Shown piece after piece: positions 29,561 to 51,849 of a stretch of 53,171 nucleotides of DNA; the stretch's first letter is position 1; every line of letters begins with the position of its first letter. The translations under genes were made by a program, and so were the position numbers. The stretch lies in contig JAFSNG010000012.1 of assembly GCA_017447515.1 (NCBI GenBank), forward strand, positions 1 through 53,171, written 5' to 3'. Source of the DNA: Prevotella sp. Lineage in GTDB: Bacteria; Bacteroidota; Bacteroidia; Bacteroidales; Bacteroidaceae. A model generated the notes under the pieces. It searched no databases, was not told the origin of the DNA, and was given only the letters and a program-made list of their open reading frames with translations.

Positions 29561-29609
29561 TCTAATCAATTCACAATTATCAAATATCCATTATCAATTC
29601 TTAAATCTC
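29561..29609 (-). repeat. Seven-unit heptamer array filling a spacer
   Basis: Seven contiguous 7-base units occupy the whole gap between two genes and the last codons of the upstream one. Most units on the minus (coding) strand begin with GA, for example GATAATG and GATATTT. The metallo-hydrolase stop (29601-29603) lies within the array. Confidence 0.7.
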
Positions 29610-30359
29610 TATCTCTTGTCCGTCGTAGGCCATTTGGATATCTTTCGGCAACGAGGCGTTTACATCTTCGTGACGCCCAATGTCGTGACTCGAATGGATG
29701 AGCCACGTCTGACGGGCACCAATCAGCCGGGCAAAATCCACGGCTTCATCCAGCGTCTGGTGCGAGTGGTGAGGCTTTTGTCGTAAGGCGTTGACCACAA
29801 GCACTTCAGCTCCTATGATGTAATCGAGTTCTCCGTCGTCAATGGTCTTCATATCCGTGATATATGCCAGCGGACCAATGCGGAAGCCAAGTATTGGCAG
29901 GTCGTGATGCATCACTTGGAATGGCATGATGTCGAGATCACCAATCGTCAATTTTTCGTGTGGATGAATCTCGTGTAACTGGATGGCCGGAACGCCTGGA
30001 TAGCGATGTTCGGCAAAACAGTATGGCAACATCTGCAACATCCCTTGACGTGCTATCGGGTCGGCATAGACATTGATTTCGCCAAACTGACAGTAAGGGC
30101 GGATATCGTCCATTCCTCCCATGTGGTCGTAATGGGCGTGGGTAATCAGGATACCGTCAATCTTCCGGAACGGCTGGTTCATAATCTGTTGACGGAAATC
30201 GGGACCGCAGTCGATGAGCAGACGCGTTTGCTCGGTCTCGACGAGTGCCGAACAGCGCAGACGCTTGTCCTTTGCATCCGTACTGCTGCACGTGTAGCAT
30301 TGGCAACCGATAGTCGGCACGCCACACGAGGTTCCCGTTCCTAAAAAAGTCAGTTTCAT
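29601..30359 (-). CDS. Metallo-beta-lactamase-fold hydrolase (PhnP-like)
   Basis: The protein has 252 residues. The metal site HAHYDH is in ILITHAHYDHMGGMDDI near 75, with later His residues in VMHHDLPILGF and IHSSHD near the C-terminus. The N-terminal FLGTGTSCGVPTIGCQCYTC has the cysteine pattern of PhnP-like phosphodiesterases. These enzymes hydrolyse cyclic phosphates or related diesters; the substrate is unknown. It overlaps murB by 4 bases and is translated with it. Confidence 0.9.
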   Translation of the reverse strand: MKLTFLGTGTSCGVPTIGCQCYTCSSTDAKDKRLRCSALVETEQTRLLIDCGPDFRQQIMNQPFRKIDGILITHAHYDHMGGMDDIRPYCQFGEINVYADPIARQGMLQMLPYCFAEHRYPGVPAIQLHEIHPHEKLTIGDLDIMPFQVMHHDLPILGFRIGPLAYITDMKTIDDGELDYIIGAEVLVVNALRQKPHHSHQTLDEAVDFARLIGARQTWLIHSSHDIGRHEDVNASLPKDIQMAYDGQEIEI

Positions 30360-31357
30360 ATAATGTTTACTTCCGGATGTATGTCAATTCCAAATTTCTC
30401 GCGAACGTCCTTGCGGATGGCTTCACACAGCGTTACAACTTCCGCACCAGTGGCACCGCCTCGGTTGACGAGCACTAGCGCCTGTTTGTCGTGAACTCCG
30501 GCACGTCCCAGCGAACGGCCTTTCCAGCCACATTGTTCTATCATCCAACCTGCCGGAATCTTTTCGTGGTCGCTGTCAATCGTATAATGAGGTATGTCTT
30601 CATACTGCGCTGCCAGCGATTCGTATTTCTCGCGACTTACCACAGGATTCATAAAGAAACTGCCTGCATTACCCGTTACTTTGGGGTCGGGCAACTTGGC
30701 ATTGCGGATATCGATGATGACGGCACGCAACTGCGCCGCCGTAGGAATGCTGATACCCCTACGCTCCAGCTCGGCACGGATATTGCCGTAATCTAACTTG
30801 GGCTCAAACGTCGATTGCAACGCGTATGTTACGTGAGTCATCAGATACTGGTTCTTCCAGTCGTGCTTGAAACGACTGTCGCGATAACCATATTGGCAGT
30901 CGGCATTGCTAAACTGCCGCAACTGTCCCGTAGCAATCTCAATGGCTTCAACCTCGACTATCAGGTCTTTCGCCTCGACACCATAGGCTCCAATGTTTTG
31001 CACGGCACTGGCTCCTACATCGCCAGGAATCAACGACAGGTTCTCGGCACCATAGAGTCCGTGCTCTACTGCCATTGCCACTATCCTATCCCATTCCATA
31101 CCGCTGCCGCAGGTCATCCTGCAACCGTCGATATCGACACCCATCAATGCAGAGTGAACCACAACACCCTCGAAGTCGCGAGTCAACAGTAGGTTGCTGC
31201 CCCCACCTATTATTATATAGGGATCTTCTGTCTCTCGCAAAATAGCAGCCACGTCACGCGCCTCATCCACAGTACAGTATTCCAAGAACCTCGTGCACCG
31301 TGCCTCAATGCCAAACGTGTTATGCTCCTTCAGGCTGTAGTTGCTTATATCTTTCAT
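30356..31357 (-). CDS. murB: UDP-N-acetylenolpyruvoylglucosamine reductase MurB
   Basis: The protein has 333 residues, the usual MurB length for the E. coli type. FAD-binding segments are IIGGGSNLLLTRDFEG and GDVGASAVQNIGAYGVE. The type-I loop YRDSRFKHDWKNQY is present, as are the catalytic Ser in GNAGSFFMNP and a final Glu in IHPEVNII. It makes UDP-N-acetylmuramate for peptidoglycan in the cytoplasm. Confidence 0.96.
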   Translation of the reverse strand: MKDISNYSLKEHNTFGIEARCTRFLEYCTVDEARDVAAILRETEDPYIIIGGGSNLLLTRDFEGVVVHSALMGVDIDGCRMTCGSGMEWDRIVAMAVEHGLYGAENLSLIPGDVGASAVQNIGAYGVEAKDLIVEVEAIEIATGQLRQFSNADCQYGYRDSRFKHDWKNQYLMTHVTYALQSTFEPKLDYGNIRAELERRGISIPTAAQLRAVIIDIRNAKLPDPKVTGNAGSFFMNPVVSREKYESLAAQYEDIPHYTIDSDHEKIPAGWMIEQCGWKGRSLGRAGVHDKQALVLVNRGGATGAEVVTLCEAIRKDVREKFGIDIHPEVNII

Positions 31358-31359
31358 CC

Positions 31360-31401
31360 TTACCTCTTACTTTTTACCTCTGACATCAGACATCTTACGT
31401 C
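31360..31401 (-). repeat. Six-unit heptamer array over the DUF4348 stop
   Basis: Six contiguous 7-base units, five fitting NNNCNTC on the plus strand (TTACCTC occurs twice, AGACATC once). The stop of the lipoprotein gene (31395-31397) is inside the last unit. The array reaches to within 3 bases of the murB start. Confidence 0.75.
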
Positions 31402-32237
31402 GTCAGCTTCGTCAATTTCCATTTACCGTCTTTCTTCACAAACCCCATCTCCAACTCCATACCGTTTGCTATGCCGCGCAGCACAAAGATTTTCTTGTTG
31501 CCACTCTTGTGGGGCTGACCGTAAATGATGTTGAAAATCATCTTTTGAGGCAACTCAGGTGCGAATGCCTCCCATGTGTCCGAAGATATCAGCCCTTCCA
31601 TGCGTGCAAAGTCGTCATCGGGGTCTGGACCCTCAAATTCCATGGTTTCGTTCAGACTCTCCAACTGAAAATCATGATCTGTCGCAAACTGGTGGTAAAA
31701 CTCCAGGAACGATGCGTTCGTCGATTGGCTAATGGGGATAGTATTGATGCTCGTCAGCATCCAAGCGCCACGAAGACGGTCAAAGATATGTTGCACCACG
31801 GCTCCTGTGTTGAAGTATATCATCTCTACTATCGCATGGTTCAGCGACGTGTCCTTCACCACTTCCATCTGTTTCTCACTGTCGAACAGCAGCGTATAGT
31901 AGTCCTGGCGCATAAAGTAACGTTCCATCTTCCACTCGCCCTTCTCAATCTTCCCTTCCTTGCCAGCTTTCGTCGTCTTCAGCGGAAAGAGAATACGCTC
32001 CATCTGCAACGACTTATTCGCCGCAAAGTTGAAGATAAAGTCGTCGAACAACTCGTCAGCGGCCTTGGGCATCGGGATGTTTGCCAACAGGTCGGCAATA
32101 CTGTCGTTGGCGGTAGAATCTACACTCGTCGTCTGCACAGAATCTGCCGGGACCACATCCTCGGTTACTCCCGTCTTACTGCCTCCGCATGCTATCAACA
32201 ACATGCTGCAGACCAAACCAACAAAAAACCGTTTCAT
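31395..32237 (-). CDS. Lipoprotein, probably DUF4348
   Basis: The protein has 280 residues. A lipoprotein signal peptide (lipobox LIAC, Cys near 17) is followed by a low-complexity Ser/Thr/Asp-rich linker to about residue 50, then a globular domain rich in aromatic residues (FDDFIFNFAANKSLQMERI and MRQDYYTLLFDSEKQM). I recognise it as the Bacteroidales DUF4348 type, from memory. The domain resembles small NTF2-like secreted folds. Function unknown. It lies between GH127 and murB, 25 bases from the former. Confidence 0.8.
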   Translation of the reverse strand: MKRFFVGLVCSMLLIACGGSKTGVTEDVVPADSVQTTSVDSTANDSIADLLANIPMPKAADELFDDFIFNFAANKSLQMERILFPLKTTKAGKEGKIEKGEWKMERYFMRQDYYTLLFDSEKQMEVVKDTSLNHAIVEMIYFNTGAVVQHIFDRLRGAWMLTSINTIPISQSTNASFLEFYHQFATDHDFQLESLNETMEFEGPDPDDDFARMEGLISSDTWEAFAPELPQKMIFNIIYGQPHKSGNKKIFVLRGIANGMELEMGFVKKDGKWKLTKLTT

Positions 32238-32262
32238 GAATAATCGTTCTCTAAAACTATTT

Positions 32263-34638
32263 TCAATTTCCCTTCACCAGTCTCACCTCGTAGATTTCTC
32301 CAATCTGCTTGCGGGGCTTAGCAACAAATTTTACGCGTACCTGCGTTTTACCTTTCAGCAACTCGGCGGGAACGGGATAGGTCTCGTACTTAAACTCGGA
32401 GATGCGATACTTGCCCGTGTTGTTCACCGATGTCACCAGTACGTCATCAACGAAGATGTCGAACTCATGGCTCTTCCACTCGCCAACACCCCAATACTTC
32501 AGACGCAGCGAGAGGTCGGTTTCTCCGCCCGTTTGCATCAGATAACTGAAATAATGACCGTCACGAGCGTCACGGAAGAACACGTCGTTGGTATTACCTA
32601 CGAACGAATCGTCAGTCTCCATAAAGTGATCGCTCTCAGGCTGTTGCTCGCCAGGCTGAACTTTATCGGTTGTGCGCGCCTCCAAAGCTTGGCGTTCCTG
32701 TTCCTGCTTGGCCAGATTGTCCAGATAGCCCTGATAGCTATCCTCCGTCAGAGCCAGCCAATACATCATATAACGTGCATCGTGCAACTCGAAGAACGGC
32801 ATCAGCTCGTTACGAATTTCGTTCACCATCTTGGTATTGAACGTAAAGTGCAGGGGCTTGCCGGCAATGGGTTGCAAATGGTTGGCGATGTCGTCAATAT
32901 GATTGTTAATCAGGATCGGTGCCTCATTGATGGGCTGTTTCTTACCCACTGCCAACTGTCCGAAACGGCTGTCGTCGGCAATCAGACCAACCAAATCCTC
33001 GGTGCCAGTCTTCATAGCAAGCATGATAGGACCGTGCATCAAAGCAATATACTGCGGCAGGTTGGGCAGATACTTCACACTGTTGTACATAGGAAAGTTG
33101 ATGTCCACCACGTCGCCTTTCTTCCATTGGCGGTCAATGGTAACGTAGGATGACGGGCCAGTGATGATCTGCACAGGCTGACCATTCACTTTCACCGAGA
33201 ACTGCCCCGGCTTCACCCAACCAGGGTAACGAATCTGAAGCGCAAATTTGCCTTTGCCCTGCGTAATGGTAATCTTGCTGGTTTCGCTATAGGGGAACGC
33301 CGTTTCTTGACGGAGCTGGACACCTTTTTCCCTCCAATTCAGTTCGGAAGCCACAAAGAGGTTCACAAACAGGGCATCACCAACGTGGGTATAGACGAAC
33401 TGCCCATATTTACCGTGATTCTCCATACCTGTTCCCACGCAACACCACATCGCCTCGTTGGGCGCAGAATAGTTACGGTAGTGACGCGGACGGGCCGACG
33501 TGAAATAAACATAGCCGCCATGTTCCGGATGTTGGCTCGAAAGAATATGGTTGAAGGTGGCCAACTCATAGAAGTCCGCATAGCGAGCCTCGGGATTGCG
33601 GCGGTGCAGTTCCTCGGTCAATTTCAACATATTGTTGGTGTTACACGTCTCGGGACCGTCGATATCCTCGACAAAATCCTGACAGGCCTCTTTGCTGGGG
33701 AAGTGTTCGCGACGACTATTGCCGCCGAACGCGAGTGACCTTTCTCCGGTCACGATGTCCCAGAAGTAAGCGCTGGCATTATGGTACACTTCGTCACCCG
33801 AGAGTTCCGAAATACGCTCGAAACCCACAACTTTCGGCACTTGCGTGTTGGCGTGCAGATTATCCAGACAGTCCTGCCGCTGTGACAAAGGCTGCAGCAG
33901 ACGCTTGTGCGAGAAACGACGGGCCGCGTTCAGATATTTCCTATCGCCTGTGATGGCGTAGGCGTCAGCCAGTACCTCGTTCATGCCGCCGTGCTCTGTA
34001 TGCAGTGATTGCTCCACCTGAGCGTCACTGAGGTCTGCTGTCAGATTGATAATCCAGTCGCAGAAACCAAGGAACAGCTGCTTGGCCTGTTCGTTGCCGC
34101 AATATACCCAGGCATCGCGCAGACCGGCATACATCTTATGTAGGTTGTAGAACGGCACCCACGCGCCGTAATAGGGTCCGAAGTTTCCCTTCTTATATGC
34201 CGACCAGATGCGGTCGCTGCCGGGAACACCGCCTACATAGCCCTTGCCCCATTCGGGATGGTTCTTGGCATTGGCATCAGCACAGCGTTGCAACTCGCTA
34301 ATCCAATAATCCAAGCGTTCCTTACACTCCTTGCTTCCCGTAGCAGCATTGATAGCCATCGCCGTCAGATAGTGTCCTCCGACATGTCCGTCCAATCCGT
34401 CCCAGTTGGGATAAGACTTTCCTTTGGGCGTCAGTCCCGCCTCCTTCAGATAAGGTGCCAACAGACGATCGTTGTCGTACTTCAATAGTACGCTGACGTT
34501 CAGGTCACGGGCCTTCTTCAGCGGTCCGTCCAACAATGTCACATCACCAAGTGGAAACTCATCGCTGTAGAGCTTGTCTTGTGCTCCAGCGGTCATACCG
34601 ACAGCCAAAAGTGCGGAAAGGATAAATATTCTTTTCAT
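32263..34638 (-). CDS. GH127-type beta-L-arabinofuranosidase
   Basis: The protein has 791 residues from ATG 34638; the frame extends 33 codons upstream across the promoter. A signal peptide ends at TAGAQ. The (alpha/alpha)6 barrel has the zinc/nucleophile residues known from the Bifidobacterium enzyme HypBA1: Glu and Cys in ETCNTNNM near 330 and the paired Cys in MWCCVGTGMENHG near 398. Beta-sandwich domains follow. Family members remove beta-L-arabinofuranose from pectic or glycoprotein glycans; several Bacteroidetes relatives (GH146 and others) have different linkages, so the exact specificity is open. It heads the leftward series that ends with nhaD. Confidence 0.85.
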   Translation of the reverse strand: MKRIFILSALLAVGMTAGAQDKLYSDEFPLGDVTLLDGPLKKARDLNVSVLLKYDNDRLLAPYLKEAGLTPKGKSYPNWDGLDGHVGGHYLTAMAINAATGSKECKERLDYWISELQRCADANAKNHPEWGKGYVGGVPGSDRIWSAYKKGNFGPYYGAWVPFYNLHKMYAGLRDAWVYCGNEQAKQLFLGFCDWIINLTADLSDAQVEQSLHTEHGGMNEVLADAYAITGDRKYLNAARRFSHKRLLQPLSQRQDCLDNLHANTQVPKVVGFERISELSGDEVYHNASAYFWDIVTGERSLAFGGNSRREHFPSKEACQDFVEDIDGPETCNTNNMLKLTEELHRRNPEARYADFYELATFNHILSSQHPEHGGYVYFTSARPRHYRNYSAPNEAMWCCVGTGMENHGKYGQFVYTHVGDALFVNLFVASELNWREKGVQLRQETAFPYSETSKITITQGKGKFALQIRYPGWVKPGQFSVKVNGQPVQIITGPSSYVTIDRQWKKGDVVDINFPMYNSVKYLPNLPQYIALMHGPIMLAMKTGTEDLVGLIADDSRFGQLAVGKKQPINEAPILINNHIDDIANHLQPIAGKPLHFTFNTKMVNEIRNELMPFFELHDARYMMYWLALTEDSYQGYLDNLAKQEQERQALEARTTDKVQPGEQQPESDHFMETDDSFVGNTNDVFFRDARDGHYFSYLMQTGGETDLSLRLKYWGVGEWKSHEFDIFVDDVLVTSVNNTGKYRISEFKYETYPVPAELLKGKTQVRVKFVAKPRKQIGEIYEVRLVKGN

Positions 34639-34656
34639 CGATTGCGAAATTTTCTG

Positions 34657-34688
34657 CAAAGATACAAATAAGCGAGTAAAGAACCAAA
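34657..34688 (-). promoter_or_regulatory. GH127 promoter
   Basis: Minus-strand TATCTTTG (34657-34664) and TTTG (34685-34688) have the exact 20-bp spacing. The -33 box lies in a hairpin (34678-34714), and a degenerate copy of the whole promoter is found 85 bp upstream. Confidence 0.8.
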
Positions 34689-34778
34689 GGAAAACTCGTT
34701 TTTCTTTGTTCTTTCGAGCGAAAGTATCTTCTCGCATAGCGAAAAGTTACAAATAAGCAAGCAAAATACCAAAAAAAT
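34664..34778. repeat. 85-bp-offset direct repeat and hairpin between divergent genes
   Basis: ACAAATAAGC and about 20 following, mostly matching, bases occur at 34664 and again at 34749. Between them an A/T-rich hairpin (arms 34678-34694 and 34700-34714, with two bulged bases) surrounds a CTCG loop. The repeat duplicates the -33 region of the GH127 promoter in the stretch between GH127 and rsmG. Confidence 0.6.
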
Positions 34779-34789
34779 AATCCAAAACC

Positions 34790-34821
34790 TTTGGTTCATT
34801 ACTCATTTATTTGTACCTTTG
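34790..34821 (+). promoter_or_regulatory. rsmG promoter
   Basis: TTTG (34790-34793) and TACCTTTG (34814-34821) have the exact 20-bp spacing; the ATG at 34827 follows 6 bases after the -7 box, so the transcript is nearly leaderless. Confidence 0.8.
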
Positions 34822-34826
34822 TCAGC

Positions 34827-36283: not shown

Positions 36284-36306
36284 TTTCAGATGCTGCAGAA
36301 GACACA

Positions 36307-36921: not shown

Positions 36922-36973
36922 ATTCTTTCTATTTCCTTATTTAGATTGTTATTAGTTTCTGTTCTCTAAGTAC

Positions 36974-38755: not shown

Positions 38756-38780
38756 AGTCGTGAAAACACAAATAGCTTTG

Positions 38781-38788
38781 CAAAGATA
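38781..38788 (-). promoter_or_regulatory. -7 box of lepA
   Basis: Minus-strand TATCTTTG lies about 25 bases upstream of the lepA start. No good -33 box is seen. Confidence 0.55.
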
Positions 38789-38849
38789 CAACAAAAAATC
38801 GAAACGACCTACACAAGTGTGCAGATTTTTATAATTTTTTTCGTTTCAG

Positions 38850-39650: not shown

Positions 39651-39674
39651 CATACACTCATGCCAAAATTTGTG

Positions 39675-39682: not shown

Positions 39683-39689
39683 TAAAAAA

Positions 39690-39717: not shown

Positions 39718-39725
39718 GTTTTTTG

Positions 39726-42364: not shown

Positions 42365-42371
42365 TTGAGCG

Positions 42372-42399: not shown

Positions 42400-42420
42400 C
42401 ACACAAATAATGCAAAAAAC

Positions 42421-43170
42421 ATGATTAGCAAAAACCAAATCAAGCTCATTCGCTCGCTGGAGCTGAAGAAGAACCGCCGGCACGAGAACCTCTTCGTGGC
42501 AGAAGGACCGAAGGTCGTAGGCGATTTGTTGCAGGCAGGATTCCTGCCCCACTCCGTCTTTTCGACCACTGAACGCCCTGACGCACAACTGATTACAGAA
42601 GAGGAACTGCGTCGCATCAGTTTCCTGCAACATCCACAAGAGGTGCTGGCGCTGTTCCAGATTCCCGCTCAGCCCTCAGACATCTTACATCATCCATCTG
42701 ACATCATCCCTCATCCCTCATCCCTCTCCCTCGCTCTCGACGGCGTGCAGGATCCAGGCAACGTCGGTACCATTATCCGCATTGCCGACTGGTTTGGCAT
42801 CGACACCATCTACTGTTCACCGGATACAGCCGATGTCTATAATCCCAAGGTCGTGCAAGCCACTATGGGCAGCCTCGCACACGTACATATTATATATTGC
42901 GACCTGCTGGAACTGTTTGCCCATTGTCAATGTTCTGTTTACGGCACCCTGCTCGACGGCAAAAACATCTACGAACAGTCCCTCACCGCCGACGGCATCA
43001 TCGTCATGGGCAACGAAGGCAACGGCATCTCGGAGGCCGTCAGGGAGAAGATTACCCACCGCCTGCTCATTCCCAACTACCATACTGGCGACCACACGGC
43101 CGAAAGCCTCAATGTGGCCATAGCGACAGCCATCACCTGTGCAGAATTCAAGAGGAGGGCTGCCCTATGA
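42421..43170 (+). CDS. TrmH/SpoU-family RNA 2'-O-methyltransferase
   Basis: The protein has 249 residues from ATG 42421. An N-terminal substrate-binding domain (KNQIKLIRSLELKKNRR, L7Ae-like fold) is followed by a SPOUT domain with the three knot motifs: LDGVQDPGNVGTIIRIADWF, VMGNEGNGIS and HTAESLNVAIATAI. It methylates rRNA or tRNA ribose; the target is not determinable. The linker between the two domains (about residues 83-103) is encoded by an eight-unit heptamer array (42671-42726), which makes it longer and richer in Ser, Pro, His and Ile than I would expect for the family. It overlaps the next gene by 4 bases. Confidence 0.9.
   Translation: MISKNQIKLIRSLELKKNRRHENLFVAEGPKVVGDLLQAGFLPHSVFSTTERPDAQLITEEELRRISFLQHPQEVLALFQIPAQPSDILHHPSDIIPHPSSLSLALDGVQDPGNVGTIIRIADWFGIDTIYCSPDTADVYNPKVVQATMGSLAHVHIIYCDLLELFAHCQCSVYGTLLDGKNIYEQSLTADGIIVMGNEGNGISEAVREKITHRLLIPNYHTGDHTAESLNVAIATAITCAEFKRRAAL
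42671..42726 (+). repeat. Eight-unit heptamer array inside the methyltransferase gene
   Basis: Eight contiguous 7-base units all fit NNNCNTC; ATCCCTC occurs three times in a row at the end. The strand orientation is opposite to the arrays at stop codons. The first 15 bases (from 42670) are identical to a stretch in the next gene at 43389. Confidence 0.85.
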
Positions 43171-43952
43171 TATTCTATTTCACTGGTACTGGAAACACCC
43201 GCTGGGCAGCCCAGCAGCTGGCGGAAGCGACAGGCGACGAACTGCGTTTTATACCTGACGAACTCGGCAAAGGCGAGCTAAGCTATACGCTGAAGGACGG
43301 CGAACGACTGGGATTCTGCTTTCCCACCCACGGCTGGCAACCGCCACGTATTGTCCGCGAATTCATCCGCAAGGCCACCTTCAACCTTCAGCCCTCAGAC
43401 ATCACCCATCAACCGTCTTACATCTACGCCCTCACAACCTGCGGCGACAACATGGGATATGCCATGCGCATCTTCGATAAAGAGCTGTCGCAGAAAGGGT
43501 TACACACCGATGCACGCTTTGCCATCGTGATGCCCGAATCGAACGTCTGCTTCTCGTTTCTTCATCTCGACACCGACGAGAAAGCCCTCCGGAAGGTCAA
43601 TGCTGCCCGACAGCGAATGACACATATCTGTCAGGTTGTCAAGGAATGCCAGCGCGACGTGGAGGAACTGGTGAAAGGTGCCATTCCCTTTACCTACACC
43701 TACATCATTGGCGGTTACTACAACAAACACCTCATCACCGACCGTCACTTCTGGGTCGATGCCGAGGCCTGCATCCAGTGCGGTCTCTGTGCCAAGCTAT
43801 GTCCTGTCGACGACATAAAAGGTACACCGCCCGTGTGGCAACACAACGAACGGTGTACAAATTGTCTGGCCTGTTATCATCACTGTCCCCGTCACGCCAT
43901 CCATTGGGGCGACATGAAGCGCGGACAGTATGTTTTCAGAGGTGAGAGGTGA
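43167..43952 (+). CDS. EFR1-family flavodoxin-ferredoxin protein
   Basis: The protein has 261 residues. An N-terminal flavodoxin-like domain opens with MIFYFTGTGNTRWAAQQLA (FMN phosphate loop). Two C-terminal [4Fe-4S] motifs are CIQCGLCAKLCP and CTNCLACYHHCP. Such proteins are presumed electron carriers in anaerobes. Residues about 73-86 (FNLQPSDITHQPSY) are encoded by a six-unit heptamer array and look like an insertion in the flavodoxin domain. The gene overlaps the methyltransferase by 4 bases (ATGA), and its 3' end meets yggS tail to tail with 4 bases between stops. Confidence 0.9.
   Translation: MIFYFTGTGNTRWAAQQLAEATGDELRFIPDELGKGELSYTLKDGERLGFCFPTHGWQPPRIVREFIRKATFNLQPSDITHQPSYIYALTTCGDNMGYAMRIFDKELSQKGLHTDARFAIVMPESNVCFSFLHLDTDEKALRKVNAARQRMTHICQVVKECQRDVEELVKGAIPFTYTYIIGGYYNKHLITDRHFWVDAEACIQCGLCAKLCPVDDIKGTPPVWQHNERCTNCLACYHHCPRHAIHWGDMKRGQYVFRGER
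43383..43424 (+). repeat. Six-unit heptamer array inside the EFR1 gene
   Basis: Six contiguous 7-base units all fit NNNCNTC (for example AGACATC and TTACATC). The total of 42 bases is exactly 14 codons, so the frame is kept. Confidence 0.8.
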
Positions 43953-43959
43953 GAGGTTA
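43939..43959. repeat. Three-unit heptamer array over two converging stops
   Basis: Units GAGGTGA (twice) and GAGGTTA contain the TGA stop of the EFR1 gene (43950-43952) and, on the other strand, the TAA stop of yggS (43957-43959). Confidence 0.75.
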
Positions 43960-44628
43960 GTAAACTCTCGGTCCGAAGATAGTCGTGCCGATGCGTACTA
44001 TAGTGCTGCCCTCCTCTATGGCTATCTTGTAGTCGTGGCTCATTCCCCAGGAGCGCTCACGGAAGTAGTCGACATCAGCAAAATACTGTTCCTTGACCTG
44101 ATAGAACAATTCTCGACCCTGACGGAACTCCGAACGTATCTGCTCCATGTCGTCCACGTTGGAAGCCATCATCATCAGTCCGCAGATGCGCACATGCTGC
44201 AGCTGACGCCAGCTGCCTTCAGCCAGCAGCTGCCACAGCGCATCAGGCGTCAGGCCATACTTGGTCTCCTCCTCAGCGATGTGCAGTTCTAACAGCACGG
44301 CAATGGTGCGTCCGCATTTGGCAGCCTGCTTGTCAATCTCCTTCAGCAGCTTTAGTGAGTCCACAGCTTCTATCATCGTGATGTAAGGGACGATATACTT
44401 CACCTTGTTGGTCTGCAGGTGGCCGATGAAATGCCAGTAGATATCCTTGGGCAACGTCTCGTGCTTCAGGCGCAGTTCTTGCTCGTGGCTCTCGCCGAAG
44501 ATGCGCTGTCCCTCAGCGTAGGCAGCCTCGATATACTCGTTGGGATGATACTTACTGATGGCCACGAGATGTACACCCCGTGGCAAATCGGCCAGCACCT
44601 TACGCAGATTTCCTTTTACGTCGTACAT
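43957..44628 (-). CDS. YggS/PLPBP-family pyridoxal phosphate-binding protein
   Basis: The protein has 223 residues and a single alanine-racemase-like barrel. The PLP lysine is in HLVAISKYHPNEYIEAAY near 27, followed by FGESHEQELRLKHE, the WHFIGHLQTNKVKYI signature, and RSWGMSHDYKIAIEEGSTIVRIGTTIFG at the end (the conserved MSxD motif reads MSHD). The family has no known enzyme activity and controls vitamin B6 and amino acid balance. It is the third gene of a leftward operon with DUF4494 and the pseudokinase. Confidence 0.95.
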   Translation of the reverse strand: MYDVKGNLRKVLADLPRGVHLVAISKYHPNEYIEAAYAEGQRIFGESHEQELRLKHETLPKDIYWHFIGHLQTNKVKYIVPYITMIEAVDSLKLLKEIDKQAAKCGRTIAVLLELHIAEEETKYGLTPDALWQLLAEGSWRQLQHVRICGLMMMASNVDDMEQIRSEFRQGRELFYQVKEQYFADVDYFRERSWGMSHDYKIAIEEGSTIVRIGTTIFGPRVY

Positions 44629-44646
44629 GACAGCGGAAGCAAATTA

Positions 44647-44674
44647 TTCACTCTTCATTCTTCACTCTTCACTT
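44647..44674 (-). repeat. Four-unit heptamer array over the DUF4494 stop
   Basis: Four contiguous 7-base units: TTCACTC occurs twice, with TTCATTC between the copies and a last near copy. The DUF4494 stop (44655-44657) is inside the array. In another register the units fit NNNCNTC, as elsewhere. Confidence 0.8.
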
Positions 44675-45119
44675 CCTTGCCGTATTCGAACACGTCCATC
44701 AGCGTGGTCTCGTTCACAGCAGCTATCACGTAGTCAATCATCGTGGTACCCATCACGCTCTCGATGTTGCTCACCGCACCCTTCAGCGTGCCGGCCTGCA
44801 CCAGATAGTTCACGTTCGAACGCTTTTCCTTCTCCGTCTTCTCGTCGATGGTGATAAACTGCAACTTCGCCTTGTACCAGCGGTCGGCCATTTCCTCGTC
44901 CGAGAAGAATATCTCCTTATACGGTGCTATCTTGATGTCCTTGATGGTAAACTCGCCACTGATGTAGCTCGACATTTCTTCCATAATACGTTTTTCAGCC
45001 TCCGTAAACGACAGGGCGTCAACCACGTAACTCTCCGTAACCTTCTTCTGCAAGCCGTCCTCCATCACTTTCTCGTAGGCTATCTTGCACTCAAACCAAA
45101 TTGCTGTTCTTGATCTCAT
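44655..45119 (-). CDS. DUF4494 protein
   Basis: The protein has 154 residues, cytoplasmic, and I recognise it as the Bacteroidetes DUF4494 type (W-FE-KI-Y at the start, then ESYVVDALSFTEAEKRIMEE and FTIKDIKIAPYKEIFFSDEE). It appears to be two alpha/beta units. No function is known to me. It sits between the pseudokinase (35-base gap) and yggS (26-base gap), all leftward, so the three form one operon. Confidence 0.88.
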   Translation of the reverse strand: MRSRTAIWFECKIAYEKVMEDGLQKKVTESYVVDALSFTEAEKRIMEEMSSYISGEFTIKDIKIAPYKEIFFSDEEMADRWYKAKLQFITIDEKTEKEKRSNVNYLVQAGTLKGAVSNIESVMGTTMIDYVIAAVNETTLMDVFEYGKEVKSEE

Positions 45120-45154
45120 ATTTCAACTATTATCTTTTATCTATATTTATCTCA

Positions 45155-46390: not shown

Positions 46391-46412
46391 GTCTTATTCC
46401 ATTTTGAATGCG

Positions 46413-46420
46413 CAAAAGTA
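46413..46420 (-). promoter_or_regulatory. -7 box of the pseudokinase operon
   Basis: Minus-strand TACTTTTG lies 22 bases before the start codon. There is no TTTG at the expected distance. Confidence 0.55.
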
Positions 46421-46509
46421 CAAAAACTTCTCAATATACAGCGAATTTCATTTGATTTTTTAACACTATTAAAGCGTATATCCGTCCCGGCTGTATTCAA
46501 TTAATGCGC

Positions 46510-46660
46510 AATTAACGGGAATTCGCATTGCAACGCCACACTCCCAAGGGGAGAACGCCACACTCTGTACCTTTAGGTCAGAGAATTAACGGTAATTCGT
46601 AACCTTTGCAGCACTCAGTCGAAATGGTATACTTTTGAATTATTTTTTTGTATACTTTTA
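46510..46660 (+). promoter_or_regulatory. Repeat-rich region with orphan rightward promoter-like boxes
   Basis: Two 16-base copies (15 matching) of AATTAACGGnAATTCG occur at 46510-46525 and 46584-46599, and two copies of AACGCCACACTC at 46532 and 46554. Rightward -7-like boxes: TACCTTTA (46568), an imperfect box at 46600-46608, TACTTTTG (46630-46637, with TTTG 21 bp upstream) and TACTTTTA (46653). GTATACTTTT is repeated at 46628 and 46651. No rightward gene follows: both flanking genes run leftward. Otherwise 46391-46691 shows no coding. Confidence 0.5.
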
Positions 46661-46691
46661 CGTTATCATTTACAAGCATATTGTGAGTTCA

Positions 46692-49319
46692 TTAAGGTCT
46701 TGTAACCTCAAGAGTCTTAAGGCAGCTATCGTCTGATGAACCACCGTAAAGAATGTTGTAACGACCACTTAAAGCCATCATACATCCTGTGTGAACATCA
46801 TACCATGCGAACGTCTCATCATCGATATCCAACTCCACATTTACGGTTTCACCCTTGGCTACATTCACACGCTTGAAACCACGAAGCGTCTTCACAGGAC
46901 CTTCACTGTCATCCGGACGCTGAACATAGAGCTGAACAACCTCTGCGCCATCACGTGAACCTGTATTGGTAACTGGGATGATAATCTTCTCCTTTGTCAT
47001 TTTGCCGTCTGCTGTATATGAAGCAGGAACAAGTTGTGCATCTCCATAGGAGAACGTTGTGTATGAGAGTCCATGACCGAAGCAGAACTGAGGCTTCTCT
47101 TTCATATAGCGATAGGTACGACCCTTCATGCTGTAATCAAGGAAACTTGGCATCTGAAGTGTATCCTTATAGAAAGTGAGAGGCAGACGACCTGACGGAT
47201 TGTTGTCACCAAAGAGTGTCTCTGCCACTGCCTGACCACCCATCTGACCTGGATAGAACACCTGCATCATTGCATCACAGTTCTCTGCTTCAGGAACCAT
47301 AGCCATTGCAGAACCTGAGCAGTTGATATATACGATGCGCTTGCCTGCCTTATGAATCTTGGCAATGAGGTCGCGCTGAACACGTGGGAGCTGAATATCA
47401 GTACGGTCGCCGCCCTTGAAACCTTCAATCTGTACTGGCATCTCCTCTCCTTCAAGTCCCGGAGAGATACCACCAACAAAGACTACAACATCAGCAGAAC
47501 GAAGCTGTTTAAGCAACTGATCATCATTGAAATGAGTCGTGTTACCCATATCAAACATCAATGCGTTGATACCCTTACCACCTACATAGCGTAGTTCAAG
47601 CTCGTATGTCTTACCTGCCTCTGCAGAGAGAACATATACAGGTTCTTTGCTTTCACGACTACCCAACTGTCCCTCAGCCTCCTTGACAACTTCGCCATTT
47701 ACGAGCAACTGAATCTTAGAACATGCAGCTTTGATGTCAAACTCAATATTACTTGCTTCCGGGGTATTGATTGTTGTCTTATAGACTGCTGAGAAGTTCT
47801 CAAGATTCACACCTGCACGGAAAGTAGTTCCTCCATAGGTATAGAGCTGCATAGGGTTCTTGTAACGGCCGTAAGCAACTACAGGTCCGCTGAAGTCTGT
47901 TGTATTGTAATAGGCAGCATACCAGCCTTGTTCGCCAGCAGAACGACCAACACCCATCCAACTTTTATAGCTGGTGCTTTGTGCAAGTCCGCAACCCTGA
48001 GAGTAGATGAGCTTATTTGGCTTCACATACTTACGGATTCCATCAAGAATGGTAATGGTAGCATCGGGAGTACCGTTATAGTTACCCCAAAGCATGATAC
48101 TGTCGTTGGCATTAGGGCCTACAACTGCGATTGTCTGACGGGGATTCAGTGGCAACAATGGAGCTCTTTTGCCATCAGCAGAGCGGTCGTTCTTAAGAAG
48201 CACGATACCCTCGCGAGCTGCCTGCAGACTCTTTGCCTTATGATCAGCACAAGCTATGACAGATGCAGGAATATCATCGTATGGTGTCTTTTCATCCATC
48301 TCGCCAAGTTCGAAGCGAGCCTTGAGCAGACGGAATACAGACTGGTCGATACGGTTTTCGGTGATGAGTCCCTGACGCACAGCCTCTGGCAGTTCGATAT
48401 AAGAACCACCACACTCAAGGTCAGTACCGCTCCATACAGCCTTTGCATCTGCATGGATCGTATCAGGCTCAGTCATGTGAGCACCTGGGGTGTAAAAGTC
48501 ATTGATAGCCCAGCAGTCGCTTGTGACAAGTCCGTCAAAGCCCCAGTCGTTGCGCAGAATCTGTGTGAGCAGACGACTTGATCCGCAGCATGGCTCATTC
48601 TCATAACGGTTGTAAGCACACATCACCTCCTTGACCTTTGCCTCTGTGACGAGAGTCTTGAAGGCAGGCAGATAGGTTTCCCACAGGTCACGAAATGATA
48701 TATTATCTGCATTGAACACGTGACGGTTCCATTCTGGTCCGCTATGAACGGCATAATGCTTTGCACAGGCATGAGTCTTGTTGCCGTCAGGTCCTTGAAG
48801 ACCATTGACAACAGCAACGCCCATACGACTTGTGAGATATGGATCCTCACCATAGGTCTCCTGACCGCGTCCCCAACGTGGATCGCGGAAGATGTTTACG
48901 TTAGGAGTCCAGAATGTGAGCCCCTGATAGCGACGGATGTTGTCCTTGCTCTCTTCACGTGCAAGACGGTTTTTTACGCGCGCCTCAGTACTTGCAATAT
49001 CGAAACACTCTTGTACCAGATTAGTATCAAACGTTGCAGCCAGACCAATAGCCTGAGGAAACATTGTGGCAACACCATTTCGGGCTACACCATGCAGCGC
49101 TTCATTCCACCATTGATAAGGTTTCACACCAAGGCGTGCCACTGGTTTTGACTGGTCCATCATCAGACCGACCTTCTCCTCCAAGGTCAGACGCTTCAAT
49201 AGGTCGTTAGCACGCTCTGCAGCACTCAATTTGGCATCCTGATATGACAGGAGTGCCTGTGCATTGAGGATTGAGGTTGTTAAACTCAGCCCTAAGGCAA
49301 TAATAAAAGATTTCTTCAT
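46692..49319 (-). CDS. GH3 glycoside hydrolase with PA14 insertion
   Basis: The protein has 875 residues from ATG 49319; the frame extends 19 codons into the promoter. After the signal peptide (ILNAQ), the GH3 N-terminal barrel has GLTFWTPNVNIFRDPRWGRGQE, KHYAVHSGPEW and the nucleophile Asp in GLVTSDCWAIND near 280. The (alpha/beta)6 sandwich is split by a PA14-like domain (about 470-610). A fibronectin-III-like end (FSYGDAQLV onward) closes the protein. Related enzymes are beta-xylosidases, arabinosidases or beta-glucosidases; PA14-containing ones often act on glucosides or xylosides. Local G+C is lower than in neighbours (23 of 60 at 48001-48060 versus 40 of 60 at 45721-45780), which may indicate transfer. 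Confidence 0.9.
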   Translation of the reverse strand: MKKSFIIALGLSLTTSILNAQALLSYQDAKLSAAERANDLLKRLTLEEKVGLMMDQSKPVARLGVKPYQWWNEALHGVARNGVATMFPQAIGLAATFDTNLVQECFDIASTEARVKNRLAREESKDNIRRYQGLTFWTPNVNIFRDPRWGRGQETYGEDPYLTSRMGVAVVNGLQGPDGNKTHACAKHYAVHSGPEWNRHVFNADNISFRDLWETYLPAFKTLVTEAKVKEVMCAYNRYENEPCCGSSRLLTQILRNDWGFDGLVTSDCWAINDFYTPGAHMTEPDTIHADAKAVWSGTDLECGGSYIELPEAVRQGLITENRIDQSVFRLLKARFELGEMDEKTPYDDIPASVIACADHKAKSLQAAREGIVLLKNDRSADGKRAPLLPLNPRQTIAVVGPNANDSIMLWGNYNGTPDATITILDGIRKYVKPNKLIYSQGCGLAQSTSYKSWMGVGRSAGEQGWYAAYYNTTDFSGPVVAYGRYKNPMQLYTYGGTTFRAGVNLENFSAVYKTTINTPEASNIEFDIKAACSKIQLLVNGEVVKEAEGQLGSRESKEPVYVLSAEAGKTYELELRYVGGKGINALMFDMGNTTHFNDDQLLKQLRSADVVVFVGGISPGLEGEEMPVQIEGFKGGDRTDIQLPRVQRDLIAKIHKAGKRIVYINCSGSAMAMVPEAENCDAMMQVFYPGQMGGQAVAETLFGDNNPSGRLPLTFYKDTLQMPSFLDYSMKGRTYRYMKEKPQFCFGHGLSYTTFSYGDAQLVPASYTADGKMTKEKIIIPVTNTGSRDGAEVVQLYVQRPDDSEGPVKTLRGFKRVNVAKGETVNVELDIDDETFAWYDVHTGCMMALSGRYNILYGGSSDDSCLKTLEVTRP

Positions 49320-49344
49320 GTTAAAAAAATAGTTTAATCTGCTG

Positions 49345-49352
49345 CAAAGATA
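49345..49352 (-). promoter_or_regulatory. -7 box of the GH3 gene
   Basis: Minus-strand TATCTTTG lies 25 bases before the start. The -33 region is not conserved, so an activator may be needed. Confidence 0.55.
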
Positions 49353-49399
49353 CAAAAAATACTGAGATAATTCCACTTTTTATAGGTATTTTTTTATAA

Positions 49400-49477
49400 T
49401 GTTACTACTTGCGTCAGACAGATCTCAGTATCAAGCAGATTTGCGACAAACTCGCCTTTCCCAATCCCTCTTTCTTT
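49400..49477 (+). pseudogene. AraC-family regulator fragment
   Basis: In one frame, after a stop at 49397, the sequence reads YYLRQTDLSIKQICDKLAF and then PNPSFF. This is the second helix-turn-helix of AraC-type regulators (pattern LLxxTDLSIKQIAxxLGFxNPSFF), which should continue with a conserved FK or FR segment but does not here. The remaining 250 or more residues of a normal regulator are absent. It is a decayed remnant about 26 codons long, lying between the GH3 promoter and sodB and pointing rightward. Confidence 0.65.
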
Positions 49478-49546
49478 GATGTATCCCACCCTACTCACAG
49501 TTCGGCGAAAAAAACGCTGGTCAGCATTCTCGCCATCTTATTTCTC

Positions 49547-49567
49547 AGCCTTCAGTCCTCAAACCTC
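49547..49567 (-). repeat. Three-unit heptamer array over the sodB stop
   Basis: Three contiguous 7-base units fit NNNCNTC (AGCCTTC, AGTCCTC and a third). The sodB stop (49552-49554) spans the first two units. Confidence 0.7.
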
Positions 49568-50169
49568 TTCTCTATCACCTTCCAGTCGACAATCTGCCAA
49601 AGAGCTGAGAGATGAGCAGCACGGCGGTTCTGGTAATCCAGATAATACGCATGCTCCCAGACATCGAAGGTCAGTAACGGCTTCAACCCCTTCTGAACAG
49701 GATTAGCCGCATTCGCCTCCTGCGTAATCACCAAGGTGCCATCAGCATCTGCCGATAGCCATATCCAGCCAGAGCCAAATAGTCCTACTCCCTTCGCCTC
49801 AAACTCAGACTTGAAAGCCTCCACACTACCCCACTGCTTCTCGATCTGTGCAGCGAGTGCCCCCTCAGGAACGTGAGCAGCCTCACCGATAGGTTTAAAC
49901 TGCATGAAATACAACTCGTGGTTCAGTATCTGTCCTGCATTGTTAAATACCGCCCCTTCACTATGAAGGACAAGCTCTTTAAGCATCTCGAGTTCTCCAA
50001 GACTCCCCTCGCCTATTGGAGAGGGGTTAGGAGGTGAGGCTAGTCCATTCAGATTATCCACATACGCCTGAAGATGTTTCCCATGATGGAAACCAATTGT
50101 CTCTTTACTAATCACCGGTTCCAATGCCTCCGGTGCATACGGCAATGCCATCAATTCATATTTCTTCAT
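49552..50169 (-). CDS. sodB: Iron/manganese superoxide dismutase
   Basis: The protein has 205 residues. Metal ligands: His 28 in IGFHHGKHLQAYV, His in ILNHELYFMQF near 84, and Asp and His in FDVWEHAYYLDYQNRRA near 169-173. FGSGWIWLS and the Gln-containing segments favour an iron or cambialistic enzyme. It removes superoxide in the cytoplasm. Between the first two ligand helices the protein has a run rich in Pro, Ser and Gly (ASPPNPSPIGEGSLGELE) where relatives have a shorter loop; it is encoded by a palindromic element at 50005-50026. The spacer upstream contains a CATCAGA array. Confidence 0.94.
   Translation of the reverse strand: MKKYELMALPYAPEALEPVISKETIGFHHGKHLQAYVDNLNGLASPPNPSPIGEGSLGELEMLKELVLHSEGAVFNNAGQILNHELYFMQFKPIGEAAHVPEGALAAQIEKQWGSVEAFKSEFEAKGVGLFGSGWIWLSADADGTLVITQEANAANPVQKGLKPLLTFDVWEHAYYLDYQNRRAAHLSALWQIVDWKVIEKRFED
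50005..50026. repeat. Palindromic element inserted in the sodB coding region
   Basis: CCCCTCGCC (50005-50013) and GGAGAGGGG (50018-50026) form a stem with one mismatch around a TATT loop. The type CCCCTCTCC...GGAGAGGGG is familiar from intergenic palindromes of Bacteroidetes. Here it is in frame and encodes about seven residues of the Pro/Gly loop. Confidence 0.7.
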
Positions 50170-50200
50170 ATCAATAGTTTTAGTTTATTTATACTCCTTC

Positions 50201-50228
50201 CATCAGACATCAGACATCAGACATCATC
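50201..50228 (-). repeat. CATCAGA heptamer array upstream of sodB
   Basis: CATCAGA is repeated three times exactly, then CATCATC. It lies between the ATPase stop (50286) and the sodB start (50169). No -7 box is visible in the 116-base gap, so sodB may be expressed from upstream. Confidence 0.8.
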
Positions 50229-50285
50229 CTTCGTTCATGTCACTGACCTATCCCCTGGCATCACTCAGTTATTCATCACACCTTT

Positions 50286-51548
50286 CTATTTCTCCAACGC
50301 CCTCTCATCCATCAAAAACTCCTGGAGGCTCATAATCAGAATTCCATTCTCGTCATTGTGCCGTATCACATTGTCCTTGGTCACAACAACCTTCCTGAAC
50401 CCGTCACCCACATTCACCAGCGGACGCTCCTCCTGCTGCCGTTTTTCTGTAGTGGGTATCGAGAATGCCGACTGTACATACACTCGCTCATCAGCCTTGT
50501 TGCATACAAAATCCACCTCTATCTGCTTACGCACATACTTGCCGTCCTCCTGGCGCTCATTAATCTCCACCACCCCAACGTCAACAGAATACCCGCGCAG
50601 ACACAACTCGTTATACATCACATTTTCCATCAGGTGAGTCTCCTCAAGCTGACGGAAGTTCAGCCGAGCATTCCTCAACCCTGTGTCTGTGAAATAATAC
50701 TTATACGGCGTTGAAATATACCGTTTCCCTTTAATGTCATAACGCTCTGCCTGTTCTATCATGAAAGCATCGCACAGGTAATCCAGATACTGCTTTATCG
50801 TGACAGCCGACAACTTTCCCGTACCGGAACTTGTAAAAGTATCCTCCAGTTTCTTAGGATTCGTCAGCGAGCCAACTGCCGATGATATCACATTCAGCAA
50901 GCTCTCCAACTGAGCATCATTCTGCACCCGGTTTCGCTCAATGATATCCCTCAGGAAAACCTCGTCAAACAGGCGTTTCAAATAATCTGCCTTCTCCTCT
51001 CTCGATGGCAGTAAGGCGCAATAAGGCAGACCTCCAAAGGTCATATATTCAGTCCACACATCATCAAAGGGTTTGTCTGGCTGAATGGTTCTGTATTCCT
51101 TGAAACTCAACGGACGCAGATACATCTCGTCACCGCGCCCCCTGAATTCAGTAATAATATCTTTCGATAGGAATTTTGAGTTGGAGCCTGTCACGTAAGT
51201 GTCAAGGTTCTCTATATGCAAACAGCTGTTTAACACATCTTCAAACTCATCCATCAACTGCACCTCATCTATCAGCAAATAATAGGGCTTCTGGTCCTTA
51301 ATCTGCTTCTTAATGAAAGCCAGACAAGCATCTGGGTTACGTAGTTCCTTATTGGAACGATCCTCCAACTGTATCTCTATGATGTGATTCGGTTTAACGC
51401 CCGTCTCTATCAGATGCCTTTTGAAGAATTGAAACAACAAGTATGACTTCCCGCATCGTCTGATGCCGGTCACTATCTTCACACGCCCGTTGCCCTTGTG
51501 TGCAATTAGCCTTTCCAGATACCTGTCGCGCCTAATCTCCATTGTCAT
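50286..51548 (-). CDS. AAA-type ATPase with DUF4143 domain
   Basis: The protein has 420 residues; ATG 51542 is an alternative start. Walker A is GIRRCGKSYLLFQF near 30, Walker B LLIDEVQLMDEFEDV near 92, followed by the sensor VTGSNSKFLSKDI. The C-terminal DUF4143 part (about 205-400) contains YFTDTGLRNARL and NELCLRGYSVDVG with a nuclease-like segment (IEVDFVCNKADERVYVQSAF). These ATPases are common in Bacteroidetes and of uncertain function, possibly in DNA or defence processes. A weak -7 box (TAATTTTG, minus strand) is at 51598-51605. Confidence 0.92.
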   Translation of the reverse strand: MTMEIRRDRYLERLIAHKGNGRVKIVTGIRRCGKSYLLFQFFKRHLIETGVKPNHIIEIQLEDRSNKELRNPDACLAFIKKQIKDQKPYYLLIDEVQLMDEFEDVLNSCLHIENLDTYVTGSNSKFLSKDIITEFRGRGDEMYLRPLSFKEYRTIQPDKPFDDVWTEYMTFGGLPYCALLPSREEKADYLKRLFDEVFLRDIIERNRVQNDAQLESLLNVISSAVGSLTNPKKLEDTFTSSGTGKLSAVTIKQYLDYLCDAFMIEQAERYDIKGKRYISTPYKYYFTDTGLRNARLNFRQLEETHLMENVMYNELCLRGYSVDVGVVEINERQEDGKYVRKQIEVDFVCNKADERVYVQSAFSIPTTEKRQQEERPLVNVGDGFRKVVVTKDNVIRHNDENGILIMSLQEFLMDERALEK

Positions 51549-51689
51549 TCATTTAATATTTTTGCAATTCTTGCAATTTTACAAAATGTTTTGGCTACAA
51601 AATTAACGATTTCCTGCCGAACTTATTGCATTTCTTATCGTTTCTTTTGCATTTTTAACATATTACGTTCTCAAATATTCCTTTTTGCT

Positions 51690-51790
51690 CTCAACTCCCC
51701 CGCTTCCGGCACATTGGGGCGCGCCCCAAAGAGCCTCCAGCTTCCCACGATGGCCGGTTCCCTAATCGGTCACCCGCCTGCCTCAATCTC
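51690..51790. repeat. G+C-rich island with a 16-bp perfect palindrome
   Basis: Within an A/T-rich 300-base gap (51549-51848) about 100 bases are strongly G+C-rich and centred near the perfect palindrome TTGGGGCGCGCCCCAA (51714-51729). On the minus strand an open frame of 29 codons (HRGKLEALWGAPQCAGSG near its start) crosses it, but no start or ribosome signal is visible. It looks like a dispersed element rather than a gene. The rest of the gap holds only the weak ATPase promoter box and a heptamer array at the end. Confidence 0.45.
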
Positions 51791-51828
51791 CGTTTAATTT
51801 ATAATTGAATCATTCCCACAATTAATTC

Positions 51829-51849
51829 AGCCTTCATCCCTCAGACCTC
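51829..51849 (-). repeat. Three-unit heptamer array at the mini-gene stop
   Basis: Three contiguous units fit NNNCNTC (AGCCTTC, ATCCCTC and a third). The last touches the stop codon of the next gene (51849-51851). The unit AGCCTTC is shared with the sodB array and ATCCCTC with the methyltransferase array. Confidence 0.7.

What the first reader, a model, noticed from the sequence alone, without database searches (positions are those of the whole stretch)
29561..51849. Degenerate 7-base arrays at gene ends, with GA every 7 bases on the coding strand
At least seven places hold contiguous degenerate heptamers in one register: 29561-29609, 31360-31401, 43939-43959, 44647-44674, 49547-49567, 50201-50228 and 51829-51849. 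All read GAnnnnn on the strand of the gene that ends there, and nearly all contain or touch that gene's stop codon. Words are shared between sites (AGACATC, ATCCCTC, AGCCTTC, TTACCTC) but the arrays are not copies of each other. Tandem heptanucleotide families (STRR) are known in cyanobacteria; I know of no description in Bacteroidales. The regular position and orientation suggest a mechanism tied to transcription or to 3' ends, not random slippage.
Basis: partly seen in the sequence, partly recalled or inferred. Interest (0 to 1): 0.8.

Follow-up and report, generated by a model that had tools for sequence, protein, structure and literature searches.

The report
Shifting seven-base repeats in rumen Prevotella
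Short seven-base repeats are scattered through this rumen bacterium's genome, at gene ends and also inside working genes, and they change so fast that sister species can carry different words at the same spot; they look like a restless by-product of DNA copying rather than a signal that ends genes.

Summary
The arrays are real: 918,605 bases of the window's own genome hold 114 arrays of period 7, shuffles none. Missed were two strong arrays, 42668-42726 and 43377-43417, inside real genes, in frame, with the GA/TGA strand antisense. In all, 40 of 114 arrays lie inside genes. The gene-strand bias is strong where an array overlaps the upstream gene's end (24 sense, 4 antisense) and absent where it is clear of both genes (7 and 5). 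Orientation is best read as a stop-codon filter: nearly every array carries TGA or TAA, so it ends any frame entered in one orientation and stays open in the other. Turnover is fast: orthologues hold different families or none at one protein linker, and between two species about 95% identical four loci differ by family, the second family being common elsewhere in that genome. This suggests, but does not prove, that words are copied among arrays; local slippage remains the main rival. Heptamer repeats are known from cyanobacteria, Xanthomonas, Beggiatoaceae and a few Bacteroidetes; this is a new variant.

The parts
29567..29608 (-). heptamer array (TGATAAT-like) filling the gap between two minus-strand genes; overlaps the stop of 29601-30359
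31359..31394 (-). heptamer array (mixed GATGTCT / GAGGTAA words) between the DUF4348 gene 31395-32237 and murB 30356-31357
42668..42726 (-). heptamer array (TGATGNN / TGAGGGA words on the minus strand) inside the plus-strand SpoU methylase gene, read in frame as PSDILHHPSDIIPHPSS
42421..43170 (+). SpoU-family RNA methylase gene that contains the array in the linker between its two domains
   Evidence: PF22435 residues 4-77, PF00588 residues 102-240
43377..43417 (-). heptamer array inside the plus-strand flavodoxin/ferredoxin-like gene, read in frame as TFNLQPSDITHQPS
43167..43952 (+). 4Fe-4S / flavodoxin-like protein gene holding one array in a loop and ending in another
43938..43960 (+). TGAGAGG array supplying the stop of 43167-43952; the convergent gene 43957-44628 also ends in it
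44647..44673 (-). TGAAGAG array that replaces the 3' end of the DUF4494 gene 44655-45119 and supplies its stop
49547..49567 (-). weak three-unit array at the stop of the superoxide dismutase gene 49552-50169
   Evidence: score 6, p 0.0045
50201..50226 (-). TGATGTC array, 59 bases beyond the stop of 50286-51548 and upstream of the SOD gene
51829..51849 (-). weak three-unit array touching the stop of a 76-aa ORF
   Evidence: score 7, p 0.0055
12086..12130 (+). period-8 array at the end of gene 11209-12105, stops in three frames on the plus strand

Best explanation
These are dispersed, fast-evolving degenerate heptamer arrays made by a DNA-level process that works in steps of seven (sometimes eight) bases, not 3'-end elements. 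Shown: arrays occur between genes and inside genes; both kinds draw on one vocabulary of words built on TGA/TAA; for three of five families tested, units within an array are as varied as units of different arrays, a fourth is slightly and a fifth clearly array-specific; arrays gain and lose units, appear, disappear and differ in family at the same site between close species. Shown for strand: the bias towards the gene's strand is found where an array overlaps an ORF end and not where it is clear of both genes. Inferred: because 7 is not a multiple of 3, three stop-bearing units close all frames, so in one orientation an array becomes the end of whatever gene it meets, and in the other it can stay as an in-frame loop; the bias needs no dedicated mechanism. 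Inferred with less certainty: new or growing arrays are seeded at a short chance match to a family word and extended by repeated misalignment that copies words from other arrays in the genome. That would explain shared words, shuffled unit order and the parallel family differences.
For: Excess of period 7: 114 arrays in 918,605 bases, 0 in three shuffles, 0 for periods 5 and 10. Common pool: 26 of 40 coding arrays have exactly the consensus heptamer of a noncoding array, although those words cover 2.7% of heptamer space; of the 32 coding arrays with a stop-free sense consensus, 29 have an antisense stop, where 25% is expected at random. Filter: 24:4 overlapping versus 7:5 clear of genes, 29:6 antisense inside genes. 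Overwriting: read from the DNA, the DUF4494 protein ends KEVKSEE* here and KQEVKDEKPEFEG* in L179 and L180. Turnover: 11 of 30 SpoU genes (the best 30 matches, own included) hold an array in the same linker, of several families; 16 of 27 mapped noncoding arrays differ by an indel between about 95%-identical species, against 21 of 116 control segments (p 4e-5; both counted from both members of each pair, so a locus can count twice). Word copying: within-array against between-array unit identity 0.216/0.198, 0.138/0.129 and 0.463/0.430, each within one sd of random dealing; four loci are TGAACTT in one species and TAATSTT in its sister, in register in the three alignments read, and genome-wide hits go from 34 to 14 and from 18 to 55.
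Against: TGAAGTT in the second species is array-specific (0.389 against 0.130), as local slippage predicts, and TGAGAGG slightly (0.247 against 0.195, 2.4 sd); with the grouping, TGATGNN is array-specific too (0.168 against 0.096). No blocks of three or more units are shared between arrays beyond chance, so copying, if real, is in short patches. The family difference could be sorting of an older mixed array followed by local expansion. Its loci were mostly chosen because they hold one of the two words, and 4:0 in one direction is p 0.125. No enzyme is identified. The period-8 family NNATAACG keeps the gene's orientation even when clear of genes (8 of 8), unlike the heptamers. TAA is commoner in noncoding than in antisense coding arrays (74:123 against 8:98, p 3e-9), which may point to some selection outside genes. 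The 'clear' class is small (12 and 8 arrays), so a modest bias is not excluded.
Confidence: 0.55

Rival explanations
1. Local replication slippage alone: the polymerase slips by 7 bases, each array grows from its own sequence, and shared words reflect composition and a few slippage-prone motifs.
For: Unit gains and losses of 7 or 21 bases between sister species (L266/L282 differ by exactly three units). The array at 43377 starts inside the codons of a Thr-Phe pair shared with L190. One family is clearly and others partly array-specific. A 7-base polymerase contact was proposed by Mrazek 2007 (seen only as cited in PMC4679880 and PMC4692102).
Against: Coding and noncoding arrays share exact words far above chance. 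In three of five families units in an array are no more alike than units of other arrays, and neighbouring units are not clearly more alike than shuffled ones. The same difference of family occurs at four loci.
Confidence: 0.27
2. One reading: arrays are selected 3'-end elements, for example stop signals in all three frames or transcription-end signals on the coding strand.
For: Arrays overlapping an upstream gene end are 24:4 sense; 43 of 55 one-strand noncoding arrays block all three frames; TAA is enriched outside genes. Rehm 2015 (PMC4692102, passages read) reports the same position and strand preference for G-rich heptads.
Against: 40 of 114 lie inside genes, mostly antisense; no bias when clear of genes; the stop core is equally kept antisense inside genes; the two gene-end sites of this window that could be checked, 43938 and 44647, have no array in L179, L180, L188 and L190.
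Confidence: 0.1
3. A reverse transcriptase with a template RNA writes the repeats, like telomerase or the defence system DRT10.
For: DRT10 makes ncRNA-templated tandem-repeat DNA (9-nt units in Eco3; PMC12632851, passages read). A fixed TGA core with variable remainder resembles an anchor plus template.
Against: Pfam RVT_1 is not found in near-complete array-rich congeners (G055 with 283 pattern hits, G028 with 252, G032 with 189) and only in 22 of 60 genomes. Many families coexist in one genome, which would need many templates.
Confidence: 0.04
4. The words are binding sites of a DNA-binding protein, kept by selection in both orientations.
For: Fixed columns with one or two variable columns, as in T[GA]AGA[GA]G and TGA[TC]AAT; same words in coding and noncoding DNA.
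Against: Families differ between species and between orthologous sites, and the four window sites checked in the nearest relatives have no array there.
Confidence: 0.04

Closest known systems
TAACTGA direct repeats of Beggiatoaceae, some cyanobacteria and five Bacteroidetes (MacGregor 2015, PMC4679880; abstract, introduction, section 10 and passages read)
   Same: tandem heptamers; stops in all three frames in one orientation; some sets in reverse orientation inside ORFs; indels mostly in 7-nt steps between two cyanobacterial strains
   Different: one word; most lie just upstream of start codons in the Beggiatoaceae genome; here many TGA/TAA families, species-specific, a third inside genes
GGGNATC G-quadruplex heptads of Xanthomonas and Nostoc (Rehm 2015, PMC4692102; abstract and passages read)
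   Same: dispersed degenerate heptamers, between co-directional genes, within 50 bp of the stop on the sense strand, sometimes overlapping it; variable between close species; sometimes inverted
   Different: G-rich, able to form G4; under-represented in coding regions; the main words here lack a G run and carry stops
STRR heptanucleotides of Calothrix and other cyanobacteria (name recalled; three Calothrix heptanucleotides are mentioned in PMC4692102)
   Same: tandem heptamers in one genome
   Different: words not compared here
Rickettsia palindromic elements in genes (recalled; only a search listing seen)
   Same: dispersed DNA kept in frame inside protein genes
   Different: long palindromic units, not 7-base tandem arrays
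DRT10 telomerase-like defence RT (PMC12632851, passages read)
   Same: makes short tandem-repeat DNA with an anchor
   Different: needs an RT and ncRNA; 9-nt unit in the main example; no insertion into the chromosome in the passages read

Membership tests
TAACTGA repeats | tandem copies of the word TAACTGA | tested here: not met
   none of the 45 consensus words of 114 arrays is TAACTGA or a rotation or complement of it
TAACTGA repeats | stops in all three frames in forward orientation | tested here: met
   43 of 55 noncoding and 24 of 29 coding-antisense arrays block three frames on the stop-rich strand
GGGNATC G4 heptads | G-run in every unit | tested here: not met
   main words are TGAGAGG, TGATAAT, TAAGAGG, TGATGGC; a few units such as TGAGGGC hold GGG
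Heptameric simple sequence repeats (LSSR) | excess of 7-base tandem units over other lengths and over chance | tested here: met
   114 at period 7 against 0, 4, 32 and 25 at periods 5, 6, 8 and 9, and 0 at period 7 in three shuffles
Heptameric simple sequence repeats (LSSR) | non-multiple-of-three units avoided in coding regions | tested here: inconclusive
   density 0.048 per kb inside genes against 0.80 per kb elsewhere, yet 40 of 114 are inside genes
Telomerase-like RT product | an RT in the genome | tested here: not met
   no RVT_1 in near-complete array-rich G055, G028 and G032; other RT families not searched
Mismatch-repair-deficient repeat expansion | loss of MutS | tested here: not met
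   MutS_I in 32 of 33 congeners searched, array-rich and array-poor alike; only G009, array-rich, had none
Intrinsic terminator / 3'-end signal | transcript ends in the array | not testable with these tools
   no RNA data

The most novel reading that the evidence does not exclude
Bacteroidota carry a trans-acting array-writing process: words are copied from a genome-wide pool into existing and new sites in 7-base steps, so that a lineage can change the sequence of many unlinked arrays in parallel, including loops inside proteins.
Probability: 0.3. Interest if true: 0.85.

Novelty: new variant of a known kind. Interest (0 to 1): 0.6.

Why it matters
Why seven-base repeats are the most abundant class in many bacterial genomes (Mrazek 2007, as cited in PMC4679880) is an old open question. 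This genus offers genomes with zero to over 400 pattern hits and sister species in which arrays differ in family at the same site, so the mutational process can be read directly. The arrays also put repetitive peptides into enzymes and set where some genes end, which affects annotation and strain typing. The stop-filter result is a warning against reading the position and strand of such repeats as function.

Tried and rejected
A 3'-end mechanism: rejected as the main cause because the bias is absent away from ORF ends. Selection for stops as the keeper of the TGA core: not supported, equal in antisense coding arrays. RT or telomerase-like origin: RVT_1 missing in array-rich genomes. Mismatch-repair loss: MutS present in 32 of 33. 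Block copying of whole arrays: unit order not shared at three or more units beyond chance. Synteny around SOD in the 80 loci: of nine window proteins tried, besides SOD only two gave hits, in five loci and one, so SpoU was used instead. The read-backwards control of the genus and phylum scans is no clean null, because it too matches heptamer arrays in some genomes; in several it is as high as the pattern. unit counts are wrong: a variable overwrote the complement table and the minus-strand rows were corrupted; one search replaces them (the binomial tests do not depend on it). G009/G063 were not a close pair (70.5% over 2.6 kb) and were dropped. Gene calls are my own script, not a standard caller; starts are approximate. 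Ten paper searches listed no description of heptamer arrays in Prevotella; only named that genus, and 'heptameric repeats' with 'Bacteroidetes' gave no paper. Four papers were opened (PMC4679880, PMC4692102, PMC12632851, PMC4060949), in passages or sections only. The library is open-access only.
Full report
1. The observation. I scored tandem self-similarity at a fixed period. In the window, period 7 gives 7 segments scoring 11 or more, against 0-2 for each other period from 4 to 13 and none at period 7 in five shuffles. GA recurs in a dominant register on one strand at every site.

2. Genome scale. I read 918,605 of the 1,921,349 bases of the window's genome (MAG, 78 contigs, 61% complete) as 61 stretches, window included, and called 727 genes with my own script. 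At score 12 there are 114 arrays of period 7, 32 of period 8, 25 of period 9, 4 of period 6, 0 of periods 5 and 10; three shuffles gave 0 at period 7. In 109 of 114 arrays the circular consensus unit holds TGA, TAA or TAG on at least one strand (random 47%).

3. Arrays inside genes. 40 of 114 arrays lie at least 30 bases inside a called gene. The window's 42421-43170 gene is a SpoU methylase whose two Pfam domains end at residue 77 and begin at 102; the array codes PSDILHHPSDIIPHPSS between them. Others sit in loops of NRPS, PriA-like, TatD-like and agmatine-deiminase-like proteins (apart from the window's two genes I named these from memory of their motifs, not from a family search). Of the 40, 29 have the stop on the antisense strand only, 6 on the sense strand only, 2 on both, 3 on neither. 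26 of 40 have exactly the consensus word of some noncoding array.

4. Orientation. Among arrays with stops on one strand only: overlapping the upstream gene's end, 24 sense and 4 antisense; clear of both genes in a co-directional pair, 7 and 5; inside genes, 6 and 29. In a second species (G055, 307,593 bases, 40 arrays): 7 and 1; 5 and 3; 2 and 5. Pooled: 31 of 36 sense (p 1e-5), 12 of 20 sense (p 0.50), 34 of 42 antisense (p 7e-5) (binomials). Not in these counts, of the own genome's 114: 7 at stretch ends, 6 convergent (3 sense, 2 antisense, 1 both strands), 9 divergent, 3 overlapping the downstream gene, and those with stops on both strands or neither. The simplest reading is a filter: three stop-bearing heptamers close all frames, so a gene that meets such an array ends there, and only the reverse orientation can remain inside a gene. 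The DUF4494 gene shows it: VFEYGKEVKSEE* here, VFEYGKQEVKDEKPEFEG* in L179 (read from the DNA).

5. What keeps the TGA core. It is present in 107 of 120 units of antisense coding arrays and 200 of 234 noncoding units (p 0.41), so termination does not explain it. TAA is commoner outside genes (74 TAA to 123 TGA, against 8 to 98 inside), which leaves room for some selection, or for a protein-level cause inside genes. In the second species this difference is not seen (6:102 against 0:23).

6. Turnover. None of the four arrays at 42668, 43377, 43938 and 44647 is present in the two nearest syntenic relatives (L179/L130 and L180/L131). Of 30 SpoU genes, the best 30 of the matches in 196 of 200 genomes and including the window's own, 11 have a heptamer array in the same linker, from several families (GATGGCT, GTGAGAG, GAGAGTT, TGATGTC and others), and 19 none at score 8; mean linker length in the tool's cut 18.5 against 16.7 residues, so arrays seem mostly to replace linker sequence. 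Three pairs of species about 95% identical were compared. Counting from both members of each pair (so a locus can count twice), 27 noncoding arrays had mapped flanks: 16 differ by an indel, 3 by substitutions, 8 are identical; 14 could not be mapped. Coding arrays: 2 indel, 1 substitutions, 3 unmapped. Control noncoding segments: 21 of 116 mapped differ by an indel, 83 unmapped; control coding segments 1 of 175, 35 unmapped (noncoding p 4e-5).

7. Word switching. In the pair G094/G179, hits of three TGAACTT units number 34 and 14, of three TAATSTT units 18 and 55 (overlapping hits, not loci). I fetched loci holding these words (not all of them) and mapped arrays with at least two exact words. 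Of 14 such arrays on the G094 side with flanks in the fetched G179 sequence, 4 are TGAACTT in G094 and TAATSTT in G179, 1 is partly so, 7 keep their family, 2 are lost, and none shows the reverse. Alignments of three of the four show conserved flanks and, where the arrays align, the other family's units in the same register. The loci were mostly chosen for these words, so the direction is only suggestive (4:0, p 0.125); at one of the four (L257:1254) the G094 array was not itself a pattern hit.

8. Mechanism. For TGATAAT, TGATGGC and (second species) TGAACAT, unit identity within arrays equals that between arrays; TGAGAGG is slightly and TGAAGTT clearly array-specific, and TGATGNN is so under another grouping. 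Neighbouring units are not clearly more alike than shuffled ones, and strings of three units are not shared beyond chance. This fits repeated short-patch synthesis from a pool of existing arrays, seeded at a chance match (44647 begins where relatives read GTGAAAGACGAA or GTGAAGGACGAA; 43377 begins in the codons of a Thr-Phe pair shared with L190). That step is inference. Local slippage surely adds and removes units and may be most of the story; I give it 0.27 as the sole cause.

9. Range. 54 of 60 genomes of the genus (own included) hold TGANNNN in four units, 0 to 424 hits each, and 94 of 118 across the phylum; among the places listed, dominant words differ by species. RVT_1 was found in 22 of 60 genomes and not in several near-complete array-rich ones; MutS is present in 32 of 33.

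10. Known kinds. Heptamer repeats as such are known (Mrazek 2007 as cited; MacGregor 2015; Rehm 2015). MacGregor already noted stops in three frames and reverse repeats in ORFs, and Rehm the same gene-end preference. New here, as far as the ten searches show: many TGA-core families in Prevotella, in-frame antisense arrays as a large part of the total (29 of 114), the split of the strand bias by overlap with ORF ends, and family differences at fixed loci between sister species.

Noticed in passing
own-genome stretches L009:4472-4505, L025:9237-9286, L032:18819-18852, L043:8633-8674 and others: Period-8 arrays of the word NNATAACG in short gaps between co-directional genes: 15 of 15 carry it on the gene strand, 8 of 8 when clear of both ORFs, none of the 15 inside genes. 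Unlike the heptamers, this may be a true oriented element.
   Followed up: partly
L035:13309-13398 and L017:12469-12522: Heptamer arrays that turn over into their own reverse complement in the middle, as a fold-back copy would give.
   Followed up: no
L044:11208-20000 (own contig C36): NRPS gene with arrays in several loops; two modules share MSGVRSQESGV, and one module has FLSPL(TSYLSPL)2 where another has FLSPL.
   Followed up: no
window 43167-43952 against L180:10323-11138: The same loop of the flavodoxin/ferredoxin-like protein holds a different, longer insertion in L180 and is short in L190.
   Followed up: no
genus scan: Array load varies from 0 to 424 hits among 60 genomes of the genus, also among those 99% complete; the cause is unknown.
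   Followed up: partly
   Followed up: no
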